The notes under the pieces are model-generated. The model ran no database searches, was not told the DNA's origin, and worked only from the letters and a program-made list of their open reading frames with translations. Source: Candidatus Methylomirabilis lanthanidiphila (GTDB taxonomy: Bacteria > Methylomirabilota > Methylomirabilia > Methylomirabilales > Methylomirabilaceae). From it: a stretch of DNA of 64,000 nucleotides. The stretch's first letter is position 1; every line of letters begins with the position of its first letter. Position numbers and translations under genes: made by a program. Below, piece by piece: positions 11,016 to 55,981 of the stretch. Where the stretch lies: contig CABIKM010000021.1 of assembly GCA_902196205.1 (NCBI GenBank), positions 1 through 64,000 of the forward strand, given 5' to 3'.

Positions 11016-11030
<15 letters not shown>
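9948..11030 (+). CDS. rfaE1: D-glycero-beta-D-manno-heptose-7-phosphate kinase
   Basis: This PfkB-family kinase phosphorylates heptose 7-phosphate at C1 in ADP-heptose synthesis. Visible marks are LVLGDIMMDEYIWG, the glycine-rich GGGGNVAAN, and the PfkB signature DVTGAGDTVLAALA near the C-terminus. The adenylyltransferase half of bifunctional HldE is absent, so this is a kinase-only form. The start is uncertain: ATG 9948 overlaps the previous stop, but about 42 poorly conserved residues precede the domain, and GTG 10074 would give a more usual N-terminus. The terminal residues and stop are written by a family B array. Confidence 0.88.
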
Positions 11031-12757
<1,727 letters not shown>

Positions 12758-25910: not shown

Positions 25911-26283
25911 GTCCTTTTCATAAAGAGTGCGAGGCGCCCCTATTTTCGCCCTCACCGGCCGCGCGGAATGCGGTGAAGGGAATTTCATTTATTTGACTTG
26001 ATTTGTTTGATAAGGCGTGACTTCTGATGGGGAAGTATACGCAGCAACGGACTTGTAGGTCAAGGCAATATTGGCCACACAGATTCCTGGAATGTGGGGA
26101 CGTAAGAGGTTCAAAGTTCAACGTGCAAGGTTCAAAGTTCAACGTGCAAGGTTCAAAGTTCAACGTGCAAGGTTCAACGTGCAACGTTCACGGTTCATGG
26201 TTAATCAGACCACGGAATTCGGTCTTCAGTCTGAATCCTAAACCTTGTACGTTGAACCGTGGACGTTGCACGTTGAACCGTCT
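25911..26283. repeat. Gap with a large palindromic family A heptad array
   Basis: From 26109 about ten GTTCAAA/GTTCAAC/GTGCAAG units run forward. After a unique core near 26200-26240, complementary TTGCACG/TTGAACC units run to 26281. The arms could form a long imperfect hairpin downstream of lptG. The first part (25911-26108) is the ahcY leader and I see no recognised riboswitch there. Confidence 0.8.
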
Positions 26284-51644: not shown

Positions 51645-53430
51645 TGAGATGACGGCGATCCTGGCCACCGATTGCGGGAGCACGACCACCAAGGCGATCC
51701 TGATCGAGAAGGTGGGAGGGGCGTACCGCCAGACCTTTCGCGGCGAGTCCCCAACCACCGTCGAGGCCCCGTTCGACGATGTGACCCGCGGGGTGTTGAA
51801 CGCCATCCAGGAGGTGGAGGAGTTGTCCGGACGGACGATTCTGGATGGAGAGAAGATCCTGGCGCCTGCCGGGGAGGGTCGCGGCGTCGATCTCTACGTC
51901 TCCACGAGCAGCGCGGGCGGCGGCCTCCAGATGATGGTGGCGGGCGTGGTGACGGCTATGACCGCCGAGAGCGCCCAGCGGTGCGCCCTCGGCGCCGGCG
52001 CCATCGTCATGGATGTGCTGGCCAGCAACGACGGCAGGGCGGCACATGAAAAGATCGAGCGGATCCGGGTTCTGAGGCCCGATATGATTTTGCTGTCTGG
52101 CGGGACTGACGGCGGCACCGTCTCACACGTTGTGGAGCTGGCGGAATACATCCGGGCGGCCGACCCAAAGCCCCGGCTCGGCGGAAACTTCAGGCTTCCG
52201 GTCATCTTTGCCGGCAACAGAGATGCGCGAGGCCGGATTCAGGAGATTCTGGGAGACCGGACAGCGCTCGTCATGACCGACAACATTCGACCCATCCTTG
52301 AGCGGGAGAATCTCGGACCGGCCCGCCATACGATCCACGACCTGTTTCTTGAGCATGTCATGGCCCAGGCGCCAGGATATGGAAAGCTCATGGGGTGGAC
52401 GGGCGCGCCGATCATGCCGACGCCGGCCGCGGTCGGCCTCATCATGGAGCAGGCGGCAAAGGCGGAAGGGTTAAACCTGCTGGGCGTCGATATCGGCGGG
52501 GCCACAACAGATGTGTTTTCCGTGGTGGATGGGCAGTTCACCCGGACCGTCAGCGCCAATCTGGGAATGAGCTACAGCGTGAGCAATGTCCTGGCTGAGG
52601 CCGGCATTGAGAAGATCGAGCGTTGGCTGGTTGAGCCGATTGCCGAGCAGGAGTTGCGGAATCGGATCAAGAACAAGATGATTCGCCCCACCACGATCCC
52701 CCAGACGCTCGCGGACCTGGCCCTGGAGCAGGCGATCTCTCGGGAGGCGCTTCGCCTTGCCTTTGACCAACACAAGGCGCTGGCCGTCAGCCTGAAGGGC
52801 GTTCAGCAGGAACGCACCATCGCGGACGCCTTCGAACAGGAAGAGGGCGGCAAAAGCCTCATCGACCTGTACAGGATCGACCTCATTATCGGGAGCGGTG
52901 GGATTCTTTCCCATGCGCCGCGCCGCGCCCAGGCGATGATGATGATGATTGATGCCTACCAGCCGCTTGGACTGACGCAACTCGCGGTGGACAGTATCTT
53001 CATGATGCCGCATCTCGGTGTGCTGTCCCAGGTTAATGAGCGAGCCGCCACCGAGGTCTTCCTGAAGGATTGTCTGGTTCCACTGGGCAGTTGCCTGGCT
53101 GCCGAGGGGCGGGCGAAGCGCGGTGAGCCATGTTTCGCGTATACCGTTCGATTTGCCGATGGTCGGCACACAGAGGGTACCCTTCGCTTTGGCGAGATTC
53201 TTCGTCTCGATCTTCCATCGGGAGCAGAAGCCGAACTCCAGGCGGAGCCGTCAAAGGGCTTTGACCTGGGCGGCGGGAAGGGGAAGCCGGTGAGGCTTCA
53301 GGTGAAAGGCGGTGTAGTCGGACTGATCCTGGATGGCAGGGGACGGCCGCTCTACCTGCCGGATGACTCCTCGGACCGCGCCGCCCAACTGCGAGCCTGG
53401 GCCGCAGCAATGGATCTGTATCCGGAATAA
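51637..53430 (+). CDS. GlmL/MutL-family ASKHA ATPase (glutamate mutase L-like)
   Basis: The 597-residue protein has the actin/Hsp70-type ATP site: phosphate-1 motif TDCGSTTTK at residues 11-19, phosphate-2 GVDIGGATTD near 283-292 and adenosine motif GSGGILSHA near 420. This is the layout of GlmL/MutL proteins, usually beside adenosylcobalamin glutamate mutase genes. No mutase subunit is present here, so the ATPase has another client. GTG 51637 follows GGAGGAAC; the earlier ATG overlaps the preceding gene. The cluster suggests it acts on or near a membrane complex. Confidence 0.85.
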   Translation: MSDEMTAILATDCGSTTTKAILIEKVGGAYRQTFRGESPTTVEAPFDDVTRGVLNAIQEVEELSGRTILDGEKILAPAGEGRGVDLYVSTSSAGGGLQMMVAGVVTAMTAESAQRCALGAGAIVMDVLASNDGRAAHEKIERIRVLRPDMILLSGGTDGGTVSHVVELAEYIRAADPKPRLGGNFRLPVIFAGNRDARGRIQEILGDRTALVMTDNIRPILERENLGPARHTIHDLFLEHVMAQAPGYGKLMGWTGAPIMPTPAAVGLIMEQAAKAEGLNLLGVDIGGATTDVFSVVDGQFTRTVSANLGMSYSVSNVLAEAGIEKIERWLVEPIAEQELRNRIKNKMIRPTTIPQTLADLALEQAISREALRLAFDQHKALAVSLKGVQQERTIADAFEQEEGGKSLIDLYRIDLIIGSGGILSHAPRRAQAMMMMIDAYQPLGLTQLAVDSIFMMPHLGVLSQVNERAATEVFLKDCLVPLGSCLAAEGRAKRGEPCFAYTVRFADGRHTEGTLRFGEILRLDLPSGAEAELQAEPSKGFDLGGGKGKPVRLQVKGGVVGLILDGRGRPLYLPDDSSDRAAQLRAWAAAMDLYPE

Positions 53431-53432
53431 CA

Positions 53433-53506
53433 TTTCGAGTTGCGGGTTTCGGGTGTCGAGTTTCAAATTAAGAATCCGAGACTCGAAACTTGAAACCCGA
53501 AACATT
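53433..53506. repeat. Heptad array, family C
   Basis: CGAGTTG, CGGGTTT and CGGGTGTCGAGTTTC units face complementary ACTCGAAACTTGAAACCCGAAAC units. The array separates the ATPase from the next cluster gene. Confidence 0.8.
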
Positions 53507-53516
53507 GAGGCTAACA

Positions 53517-54659
53517 ATGGCTCATTCCTATACACCAGGCTTGCGCCTGGCGCCACAGACCGTAGTCCGGAAGCGGCGGATCTTGCCGATCCCCGGACAG
53601 GTGCTTGTCCATGAGGGGCAAGAGGTCACGGCTACAACGCTGATCGCTCAGACCGAGTTGCCGGGCAAAGTCCACGCGGTGAATGTGGTTAACCTGCTGG
53701 GGATCGTCCCCCAGGAGGTCCGACGCTACATGCTTAAACGGGAGGGTGACGCGGTCAGTTCCGGCGAGCCGCTCGCCGAAAACCGGCCTCTTATCAAATG
53801 GATGAAGACCCAGGTCCCTTCTCCGATCACCGGCACGATTGAGACAGTGTCCGAGGTGACCGGACAGGTGTTCCTGAGAGAGCCGCCAAAACCCTTGGCC
53901 CTGACCGCCTATCTCGACGGCCGGGTGATAGAGACGTTTCCAGGCGAGGGGGCCACGGTGGAGACGGCATGCAGTCTGGTGCAGGGGATTTTCGGCATCG
54001 GCGGCGAGGCTGTGGGTACGATCGCAGTCGCCGTCAACAACCGCGAAGACGAACTGACGCCTGAGCGAATTACCGACGCACACCGGGGGACGATCCTCGT
54101 GGGAGGCTCGCTGATCGGTCGTGAGGGCTTCGCCAGGGCCAAACAGGTGGGAGTTGCCGCCGTCGTCGTAGGCGGCATCCATGACCTCGATCTGAAGCTG
54201 CTCCTTGGTGGACGGGACCTTGGTGTCGCCATCACCGGAACTGAGCAGGTCGGTCTGACGCTGATCATCACCGAGGGATTTGGTCGCATTGCCATGGCCA
54301 GACGAACCTTTGATCTCTTGACCTCCAAGATCGGCCGGCGGGCATCCTGCTCAGGGGCGACGCAGATTCGGGCCGGCGTCATCAGGCCGGAGGTGATTGT
54401 CCCGCTCTCGGAGCGTTCAATGTTCAACGTTCAACGTTCAACGGAGGAGACGGGGGAGGTTGGAGGCGGACTGCAGGTCGGCGATCAAATCCGGGTTATT
54501 CGAGAGCCATATTTTGGCCTGATTTGCCGGGTATCCGCGCTTCGGACCGATCTCCAGCTTCTTGCCACGGAAAGCAAGGTCCGCGTTCTCGAAGCTGAAC
54601 TTGACGACGGGCAACACATCATCGTCCCTCGTGCCAACGTCGAACTGCTGGAGGCGTAA
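53517..54659 (+). CDS. Barrel-sandwich and KOW-like protein of the MutL/DUF6754 cluster, unknown
   Basis: The 380-residue protein opens with RRILPIPGQVLVHEGQEV and later VPSPITGTIETVSEVTGQV, the paired-strand style of lipoyl/biotinyl or RnfC-like barrel-sandwich domains; no biotinylated MKM lysine is seen. A middle alpha/beta part (GTILVGGSLIGREGF, VAAVVVGGIHDLDL) follows. The C-terminus (GDQIRVIREPYFGLICRV, HIIVPRANVELLEA) looks like a KOW/SH3-type barrel. Residues of about 303-312 (FNVQRS) come from a family A repeat between the last two domains. The start is ATG 53517; the upstream ATG is in a repeat. Confidence 0.75.
   Translation: MAHSYTPGLRLAPQTVVRKRRILPIPGQVLVHEGQEVTATTLIAQTELPGKVHAVNVVNLLGIVPQEVRRYMLKREGDAVSSGEPLAENRPLIKWMKTQVPSPITGTIETVSEVTGQVFLREPPKPLALTAYLDGRVIETFPGEGATVETACSLVQGIFGIGGEAVGTIAVAVNNREDELTPERITDAHRGTILVGGSLIGREGFARAKQVGVAAVVVGGIHDLDLKLLLGGRDLGVAITGTEQVGLTLIITEGFGRIAMARRTFDLLTSKIGRRASCSGATQIRAGVIRPEVIVPLSERSMFNVQRSTEETGEVGGGLQVGDQIRVIREPYFGLICRVSALRTDLQLLATESKVRVLEAELDDGQHIIVPRANVELLEA
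54415..54441. repeat. Heptad units, family A, inside a coding sequence
   Basis: CGTTCAATGTTCAACGTTCA and one further unit are in frame between the central domain and the KOW-like domain of the protein at 53517. Confidence 0.85.
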
Positions 54660-55981
54660 TGACGTTCGGTTTCGAGTTTCGAGTTTTGAGTTTCGAGTTG
54701 AGAACCAGGAACCCGGAACCGCGAAGTACGATCTGCCGCCTCCTCCCAGTCCGTGTCCTCGCTGCAGTTGTCGCTCTTTTTCTCTTCACCCTATACCCTA
54801 TACCCTATACCCTGGCTTTGTCCCTTGCCCCTCCTGAGCAGTTCGAGGCCTTCGACATGTCTGGCGATGGCGGAGGCAGCGTCGGACTGTCGTGGCAGGC
54901 GGCCCCTTTCGATGGACCGACAGTTCGCTATCAGGTCTACATAGCTGATCAGGCGCAGGGACCATTTACGCGCGTTGCCGAGTTTGCCGCCGATACCCAC
55001 TACAAAAGTGATGTCGATCGCCCTTGGTGGAGCTGGGATCGCAGCAAGGCGTATCACTTTTACCAGGTGAAATCGACGCAGGATCTCCGCATCGAGAATG
55101 GCCGACTCTACTTCTTCATGGTGGCGGTAGCCGACGGGATACAGACGATTGAGGGGCCGGTTCAGTCGGCAATCCCGGCGCCGAATTTGTTCAACTTGGC
55201 AAAGGCGAACAACTTCCTGTTGATGCTCCTGTTCTCCACGCTGATCCTGTTTGCGATTGCGCAGGCAAAGCGACATCCGGCTATCTTCCTGCGCCGGATT
55301 CCTGGCCTGGATGCGGTGGAGGAGGCGATCGGCCGGGCGACTGAGATGGGGCGGCCGATCCTCTATCTCACCGGCTCCGACGACATGTCGAGTCTCTCGA
55401 CGATTGCGGCGACGGTCATCCTTGGACAGGTCGCGAAAAAGGCGGCGGCGTATGACACACAGCTCAAGGTGCCGCACCGGGACCCGATCGTCATGGCCAT
55501 CTGTCAGGAGATCGTCAAGGAGTCGTACCTGGAGGCCGGACGGCCTGATGCCTATCGTGACGACTCGAACTTCTTTATCACCAACGATCAGTTCAGCTAT
55601 ACCGCCGCGGTAAATGGAATGATGCTCCGAGAGCGTCCGGCCGCTAACTTCTTCATGGGCTTTTACTATGCCGAGGCGCTCCTGCTGGCAGAGACCGGCG
55701 CCGGGACCGGCGCGATCCAGATCGCCGGGACTGATGCTGACCTGCAACTGCCGTTCTTCATTACGACCTGCGATTACACCTTGATCGGCGAAGAGCTGTA
55801 CGCCGCGAGCGCGTACCTGTCGCGCGAGCCGATACTGGTTGGGACCTTGCGGGGACAGGATATAGGGAAGGCGTTTCTCCTGCTTTCTATGGTGGTCGGA
55901 ACCGTCCTCGCCACCATCGGCGGACTTGTCGGCACCCAGGCGTTTGTCCCGCTGCTGCAACTGTTCCGCGATTTTAAATAG
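54659..55981 (+). CDS. DUF6754-like membrane protein with repeat-derived N-terminus
   Basis: The 440-residue protein has an N-terminal region and signal-like hydrophobic segment (VLAAVVALFLFTLYPIPYTLA), shown here in parts VLAAVVALFLF and TLYPIPYTLA. A fibronectin-type-III-like domain (VGLSWQAAPFDGP, YQVYIADQ) follows, then a membrane helix near residue 185 and a large conserved domain with SDDMSSLSTIAATVILG and YYAEALLLAETGAG. A final helix is near 420. I recognise it as DUF6754-like from memory. The ATG overlaps the previous stop by one base. Codons 3-18 are family C repeats and TLYPIPYTL is a family B repeat. Confidence 0.8.
   Translation: MTFGFEFRVLSFELRTRNPEPRSTICRLLPVRVLAAVVALFLFTLYPIPYTLALSLAPPEQFEAFDMSGDGGGSVGLSWQAAPFDGPTVRYQVYIADQAQGPFTRVAEFAADTHYKSDVDRPWWSWDRSKAYHFYQVKSTQDLRIENGRLYFFMVAVADGIQTIEGPVQSAIPAPNLFNLAKANNFLLMLLFSTLILFAIAQAKRHPAIFLRRIPGLDAVEEAIGRATEMGRPILYLTGSDDMSSLSTIAATVILGQVAKKAAAYDTQLKVPHRDPIVMAICQEIVKESYLEAGRPDAYRDDSNFFITNDQFSYTAAVNGMMLRERPAANFFMGFYYAEALLLAETGAGTGAIQIAGTDADLQLPFFITTCDYTLIGEELYAASAYLSREPILVGTLRGQDIGKAFLLLSMVVGTVLATIGGLVGTQAFVPLLQLFRDFK
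54662..54815. repeat. Heptad units, families C and B, within the DUF6754-like gene
   Basis: Family C units (TTTCGAG, TTTTGAG) lie at 54667-54715. Family B units (ACCCTAT repeated) lie at 54787-54813. Both are in frame and translated. Confidence 0.85.

What the first reader, a model, noticed from the sequence alone, without database searches (positions are those of the whole stretch)
54659..54825. Signal/anchor segment of a membrane protein assembled from two repeat families
The first 20 codons of the DUF6754-like gene are family C units and the hydrophobic segment includes TLYPIPYTL, a family B unit run (ACCCTAT). The repeats therefore supply start-proximal and membrane-targeting residues. 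This looks like co-option of selfish or structural DNA, or a recent replacement of the original N-terminus.
Basis: partly seen in the sequence, partly recalled or inferred. Interest (0 to 1): 0.6.

Follow-up and report, generated by a model that had tools for sequence, protein, structure and literature searches.

The report
Heptamer repeats encode a signal peptide
In a methane-oxidising bacterium of the Methylomirabilis group, short seven-letter DNA repeats scattered over the genome lie in frame inside working genes, here forming the leader end of a membrane protein, and their spelling changes between species while their length and reading frame are kept.

Summary
In a Ca. Methylomirabilis (NC10) genome, a DUF6754 membrane-protein gene (54659-55981) begins inside a heptamer element. 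TTCGAGT units encode residues 3-14 and imperfect inverted AACC(C)GG units residues 15-22. A second array (ACCCTAT x3.7) encodes residues 44-52 (TLYPIPYTL). No canonical in-frame start lies between these repeats and the hydrophobic core, so at least the second arm of the first element and the whole second array must be translated if the signal segment is made.

Two corrections. The hydrophobic core (33-43) is not repeat-encoded; the second array forms the segment behind it. The first element lengthened the N-terminus rather than replacing it: four congeners lack it and keep a 5-residue n-region before a similar core.

The wider result matters more. Period-7 arrays are a genome-wide, dispersed, mostly 24-35 bp class, also in frame in HolB, GcvPB, a glycosyltransferase and the upstream gene. 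At one orthologous site the word differs between species while four units and the frame stay fixed (within-array divergence 0.10, between species 0.42, flanks 0.16). Best reading: an in-frame-tolerated heptamer repeat class with length-conserving concerted evolution, comparable to Rickettsia palindromic elements in effect but not shown to be related.

The parts
53437..53507 (.). Intergenic family C heptamer hairpin upstream of the preceding gene
   Evidence: RNA fold -36.7 kcal/mol, z = -6.7, 0 of 200 shuffles as good; relatives of it elsewhere in the genus
53517..54659 (+). Upstream gene (weak biotinyl-lipoyl/RnfC_N-like barrel match); its end carries the ribosome-binding site of the DUF6754 gene
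   Evidence: weak Pfam matches below cut-off; orthologues next to DUF6754 in the genus
54414..54443 (+). In-frame heptamer array CGTTCAA x4 in a loop of the upstream protein (RSMFNVQRST); word differs between species at constant four units
54650..54654 (+). Shine-Dalgarno-like GGAGG before the start, upstream of the repeats
   Evidence: read directly; start context
54659..55981 (+). DUF6754 (PF20539) membrane protein gene, 440 aa
   Evidence: Pfam E = 4.4e-120 over residues 174-426; one copy in the genome; orthologues in 14 congeners
54665..54699 (+). Family C 5' arm, TTCGAGT x5.1, codons 3-14
54703..54724 (+). Family C 3' arm, degenerate AACC(C)GG units, codons 15-22
   Evidence: cleaner ACCCGAA units at the same place in G021, G023, G027
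54755..54787 (+). Hydrophobic core of the signal/anchor segment (VLAAVVALFLF), not repeat-encoded
   Evidence: matching hydrophobic core in orthologues with and without the insert
54788..54813 (+). Family B array ACCCTAT x3.7, codons 44-52 (TLYPIPYTL), segment after the hydrophobic core

Best explanation
The feature is one site of a genome-wide class of heptamer repeats in Methylomirabilis: arrays of about four 7-bp units, mostly 24-35 bp, alone or as two inverted arms. They sit mainly between genes but are tolerated inside genes when oriented and sized to keep the frame. At this gene a two-arm element (family C) lies between the ribosome-binding site plus start codon and the signal-peptide core, so it is translated and lengthens the n-region from about 5 to 30-37 residues. 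A single-arm array (family B) forms the segment after the core. Once present, the units of an array are homogenised together, so the word drifts between species (CGTTCAA, CCTTCAG, CGGTCAG, CGGGCAG, CGGGAGG at the neighbouring site) while unit number and frame are held by selection for an open reading frame. Shown: dispersal, period 7, length range, in-frame presence, presence/absence between species, concerted word change at constant length. Inferred: translation itself, the neutral nature of the inserted residues, and the homogenising process, which is most likely misaligned copying or conversion between units (or paired single-unit slips) filtered by the frame. Births by copying from another locus are possible and not excluded.
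For: Period-7 excess. Dispersed copies of both families in other genus members. N-terminus with and without the element in congeners, frame kept with six different lengths, three of which (158, 179, 200) differ by exactly 21 nt, i.e. three heptamers. In-frame arrays elsewhere: HolB loop before the CGECRAC module, 9 aa empty in G022/G027 and 18, 27, 32 or 42 aa in others, where solved E. coli clamp-loader gamma/tau chains have only a few residues; GcvPB N-terminus, 18 nt empty in G027/G028, 45 nt with one unit in G026, 66 nt with four units in G000, a 21-nt step; glycosyltransferase loop, 30 aa in 10 of 13 genomes read, with different words. Upstream-gene array: within-array unit divergence 0.104, between-species 0.418, coding flanks 0.161, 0 of 2000 permutations; signal-region array 0.185 against 0.257, 0 of 2000. 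Words do not follow the DUF6754 tree; the sister pair G023/G024 differ. Near-identical G033/G034 (99.3-99.5%): arrays are 164 of about 10,000 bp but hold 9 of 60 differences, two of them the same T>C exactly 7 nt apart, without indels in the arrays.
Against: No expression or proteomic data: translation from ATG 54659 is inferred. Several orthologues (G023, G024, G029, G033) have a possible GTG/ATG just before the core, so there the first element might be untranslated leader. In G025 the family C remnant is most likely upstream of the start, and G022 and G028 use other arrangements. The homogenising process is not observed directly, and slippage with compensating slips would leave a similar pattern. 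Two-arm copies in genes do not fold better than shuffles (z -0.35 and +0.91), so a structural role in the mRNA is not supported there. The permutation test treats species as independent. Coding/non-coding calls in the survey use raw ORFs, not curated genes.
Confidence: 0.62

Rival explanations
1. Mobile palindromic element: each insertion is a copy of a hairpin element moved by a transposase (MITE/REP type, or like the Rickettsia palindromic elements), and word differences reflect different element families inserted at tolerated sites.
For: Dispersed copies with shared words; 24 of 44 intergenic arrays have an inverted partner within 120 nt against 6 of 200 random positions; empty sites exist in HolB and GcvPB; eight Y1 transposase-like and two reverse-transcriptase matches in the genome; unrelated palindromes occupy the same loops in some species.
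Against: No fixed ends or target duplication seen; single arms are common in genes (6 of 26 in-ORF arrays have a partner); words at one site form a chain of small steps at constant length rather than unrelated inserts; no link between the transposases and the arrays was found.
Confidence: 0.27
2. Ordinary simple-sequence slippage, perhaps used for phase variation of the downstream gene.
For: Tandem perfect units; heptameric repeats are known to be enriched in several bacteria, and a polymerase-footprint slippage cause has been proposed (cited in PMC4692102); 21-nt steps seen between relatives.
Against: The length histogram rises to about 30 bp and then drops sharply instead of tailing off; no frame-shifted homologue among the congeners compared at these sites; hosts include HolB, expected to be essential, where on/off switching would be lethal; other unit sizes are nearly absent.
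Confidence: 0.2
3. The heptamers are binding sites for a sequence-specific regulator and are conserved for that.
For: Comparable arrays were proposed as regulator sites in Geobacter (PMC2700814) and Beggiatoaceae (PMC4679880); positions are kept between species.
Against: The word changes at the same site between sister species, which a sequence-specific reader would not tolerate; several arrays lie within coding loops far from starts.
Confidence: 0.08
4. The repeats are an untranslated leader and the protein starts downstream.
For: TTG at 54818 and ATG at 54857 exist; G025 seems to have its start behind a family C remnant.
Against: Those starts would remove the hydrophobic core that the orthologues share, and only TTGs inside the repeat lie before the core; GGAGG stands before ATG 54659; frame kept in 12 of 15 genomes.
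Confidence: 0.06

Closest known systems
Rickettsia palindromic elements (RPE) in protein-coding genes (Ogata et al. 2000/2002, as reviewed in PMC10969869)
   Same: Dispersed repeat DNA inserted in frame into unrelated genes, with the inserted residues tolerated
   Different: RPEs are about 150 bp with family-conserved peptides; here about 30-bp heptamer arms, alone or paired, whose word changes between species at a fixed length
Heptameric repeats of Xanthomonas and Nostoc (GGGAATC, GGGGATT; PMC4692102)
   Same: Heptamer unit, dispersed, mainly intergenic, positions mostly kept between related species
   Different: Those are one G-rich word per lineage, studied for quadruplexes; here many words per genome, paired inverted arms, word switching at orthologous coding sites
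Geobacter metallireducens four-heptanucleotide elements (GGACCGG x4 and paired-strand sets; PMC2700814)
   Same: Four heptamers per element, within and between genes, some sets paired on opposite strands
   Different: Reported for one genome as putative regulatory sites; no analysis of in-frame coding or word change found in the passages read
Marine Beggiatoaceae TAACTGA repeats (PMC4679880)
   Same: Heptamer direct repeats close to start codons
   Different: One word, two to six copies, upstream of starts and mostly untranslated

Membership tests
DUF6754 (PF20539) | Match to the Pfam profile above its cut-off | tested here: met
   400 bits against a cut-off of 27, residues 174-426
Heptameric tandem repeat class known from other bacteria | Clear excess of period 7 over neighbouring unit sizes, dispersed | tested here: met
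   dispersed copies
Heptameric tandem repeat class known from other bacteria | Same word as the Xanthomonas, Nostoc or Geobacter repeats | tested here: not met
   Words found here differ from GGGAATC, GGGGATT and GGACCGG as given in PMC4692102 and PMC2700814; common origin itself cannot be tested on 7-bp words
Rickettsia palindromic elements | In-frame insertion in unrelated protein-coding genes | tested here: met
   HolB, GcvPB, glycosyltransferase, upstream gene, DUF6754
Rickettsia palindromic elements | About 150-bp element with family-conserved sequence | tested here: not met
   Arms about 24-35 bp, word differs between species
MITE/REP-type mobile elements | Defined terminal inverted repeats with target-site duplication | tested here: inconclusive
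   Inverted arms in 24 of 44 intergenic arrays; no target duplication recognised by eye in filled/empty pairs, which are too diverged for a firm answer
MITE/REP-type mobile elements | Association with a mobilising transposase | tested here: inconclusive
   Eight Y1_Tnp matches in the genome; no specific association with the arrays was established
Phase-variable (contingency) repeat loci | Unit-number variation that shifts the frame between strains | tested here: not met
   Frame kept in 12 of 15 genomes at this start and in the compared homologues of the upstream-gene, glycosyltransferase and HolB sites; strain-level reads not available
Rfam RNA families | Match to a described structured RNA | tested here: not met
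   No hit in the whole window

The most novel reading that the evidence does not exclude
A length-conserving rewriting process acts on about 30-bp heptamer modules genome-wide: it replaces the word in all four units of an array without passing through other lengths, so that essential genes can carry these modules without frameshift. This would be an undescribed kind of repeat maintenance, with protein loops and signal peptides being respelled by a DNA-level process.
Probability: 0.15. Interest if true: 0.85.

Novelty: new variant of a known kind. Interest (0 to 1): 0.6.

Why it matters
It shows dispersed heptamer DNA as a continuing source of protein sequence (signal-peptide ends, surface loops, even in a DNA polymerase III clamp-loader subunit) in a phylum without a simple genetic system. 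Because array length is held by the reading frame while the word changes freely, these sites offer a natural experiment on how short tandem repeats are homogenised, and they make the old question why bacteria prefer a 7-bp unit testable by comparing coding and intergenic arrays. It also warns annotators that repeat-rich N-termini in this group are often real.

Tried and rejected
Genome-wide word dialects: the word at the upstream-gene site does not match the word at the glycosyltransferase site in most genomes, although CGTTCAA arrays are commonest in the three genomes that carry it there; a genome-wide switch was therefore dropped in favour of local homogenisation. mRNA hairpin function of the coding copy: no better than shuffles. 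The fifth fold (L126) was taken on the wrong strand and is not used. Known RNA family: none. Link to Y1 transposases or reverse transcriptases: both families occur but nothing ties them to the arrays. Paper searches for Methylomirabilis tandem repeats and for concerted evolution of such repeats gave nothing on the point; the RPE primary paper is not held. The GcvPB anchor failed in six of fourteen loci.

Full report
WHAT WAS CHECKED. The window is a 64-kb contig stretch of a 3.05-Mb genome whose nearest named relatives are Candidatus Methylomirabilis, phylum Methylomirabilota/NC10. The gene at 54659-55981 encodes a DUF6754 protein (PF20539, E = 4.4e-120). Its start overlaps the stop of the preceding gene (TAATGA), with GGAGG four bases before. 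They encode residues 3-14, 15-22 and 44-52. The hydrophobic core, VLAAVVALFLF (33-43), lies between and is not repeat DNA, so the second array forms the segment behind the core, the expected cleavage region (inference; no signal-peptide predictor was available).

IS IT MORE THAN CHANCE. In 429 kb of this genome, perfect arrays with at least 14 matched positions number 13 at period 7, 3 at period 14 and 0-2 at every other period; a Markov shuffle gives none. With mismatches allowed, 823 kb hold 49 period-7 arrays at score 13 or more and 0-6 for other periods except the harmonic 14; 800 kb of the complete relative G024 hold 25. Array length rises to about 30 bp and falls sharply above 35 bp in both genomes. 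Both families have dispersed relatives elsewhere in congeners, up to 57 BLAST matches in one genome. Similar-length period-7 arrays also appear in DUF6754 loci of other phyla.

IS IT TRANSLATED. Between the start ATG and the core the only other in-frame ATG/GTG/TTG codons are two TTGs inside the first array; the next, TTG 54818 and ATG 54857, are behind the core. If the signal segment is made, the second arm of the first element and the whole second array are translated. In 12 of 15 genomes the distance from the upstream stop to the conserved core keeps the stop-overlapping start in frame, with six different lengths; 158, 179 and 200 differ by exactly 21 nt, three heptamers. G026, G030, G031 and G032 lack the first element and have a five-residue n-region before the same kind of core. 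G022, G025 and G028 have other arrangements, and in G025 the remnant is probably untranslated. Several orthologues have a possible start just before the core, so translation of the first element is firmest for G000, G021 and G027. I conclude insertion (or loss in some lines) that lengthens the n-region, not replacement.

THE SAME THING IN OTHER GENES. Within the sampled genome, 26 of 83 arrays lie inside ORFs of at least 100 aa. Four were compared across the genus. (1) The upstream gene: a 10-residue stretch of four units, insert 24-25 aa in 11 genomes, words CGTTCAA, CCTTCAG, CAGTCAG, CGGTCAG, CGGGCAG or CGGGAGG. (2) HolB, the clamp-loader delta-prime subunit: the loop before CGECRAC is 9 aa in G022 and G027 and 18, 27, 32 or 42 aa in others, with heptamer arms of several words or a C-rich palindrome. 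Solved E. coli gamma/tau chains align on either side of it with only a few residues between. (3) A glycosyltransferase loop of 30 aa in 10 of the 13 genomes read, encoded by two arrays whose words are CGTTCAA plus CCTTCAG in some and TTTCGAG plus ACCCGAA in G021 and G027. (4) GcvPB: 18 nt in G027 and G028, 45 nt with one unit in G026, 66 nt with four units in this genome, other inserts elsewhere, all multiples of three. Between G000 and G024, length differences at six coding array sites are all multiples of three, against about half of fifteen non-coding sites (small numbers, and several coding differences are zero).

CONCERTED WORD CHANGE. At the upstream-gene site, units within an array differ at 10.4% of positions, the same unit between species at 41.8%, and the coding flanks at 16.1%; none of 2000 permutations reaches the observed within-array value. 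The signal-region array shows the same more weakly, 18.5% against 25.7%. On the DUF6754 tree the words need nine changes where six is the minimum, about what shuffled labels give, and the well-supported sister pair G023/G024 differ. In near-identical G033 and G034, arrays are 164 of about 10,000 bp but hold 9 of 60 differences, two being the same T to C exactly 7 nt apart, with no indel in the arrays. The word at one site does not predict the word at another in the same genome, so homogenisation is mainly local. The permutation treats species as independent and so overstates significance, but the direction is clear by eye.

MECHANISM. Shown: a dispersed period-7 class of limited length; in-frame presence; presence and absence; concerted change at constant length in coding sites. 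Inferred: units are homogenised by misaligned copying or conversion, or by paired slips, and the reading frame filters length, leaving either no change or 21-nt steps in genes. Not decided: whether new sites arise in place (the GcvPB one-unit and four-unit states fit) or by copying from elsewhere (empty HolB site, paired arms and shared words fit). Intergenic arrays have an inverted partner in 24 of 44 cases, in-ORF arrays in 6 of 26, random positions in 6 of 200. The intergenic element at 53430-53515 folds strongly (z -6.7) whereas the coding copy does not (z -0.35). A simple reading is that some arms would bring stop codons in frame (for example AGGGTAT and TTGAACG read in triplets contain TAG or TGA), so genes keep mostly single arms or family C, both arms of which are open; this follows from the code and was not tested statistically.

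WHAT IS KNOWN. Heptamer repeats are reported from Xanthomonas and Nostoc (PMC4692102), Geobacter metallireducens, with four units and within genes (PMC2700814), and marine Beggiatoaceae (PMC4679880). In-frame palindromic repeats in unrelated genes are known from Rickettsia (review PMC10969869). The present case joins the two; the element is not an RPE by size or conserved sequence. I found no report for Methylomirabilis, within the limits of an open-access library. Verdict: observation confirmed, interpretation partly supported, new variant of a known kind, interest 0.6.

Noticed in passing
L102:13769-14914 (genome contig C2): HolB carries a 42-residue in-frame heptamer insert just before its CGECRAC zinc-module motif; two congeners have an empty 9-residue loop.
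   Followed up: yes
L122, L127, L247 and L204 (congeners): Other palindromic repeats (C-rich CCCCCCTTT..AAAGGGGGG type; TGTCATTGCGAG type) occupy the same N-termini and loops in some species, suggesting shared tolerated sites.
   Followed up: partly
window 11022-11107: An intergenic hairpin made of AGGGTTT/AACCCCA units stands where G024 has a hairpin of TCAGC/GCTGA units: same place and architecture, other word family.
   Followed up: no
G000:C1:26779-26809 and G000:C11:77184-77214: In-frame TCAGC-family arrays lie in two more long ORFs (1182 and 1200 aa) that look like DNA polymerase III alpha and an SMC-type protein by eye.
   Followed up: no
window 26107-26197: A longer array with a 21-bp super-unit (three related heptamers, 4.3 copies) in an intergenic stretch.
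   Followed up: no
L010 and L011 (other phyla): The 5' end of DUF6754 orthologues there also carries dispersed-looking palindromic repeats near the start.
   Followed up: no
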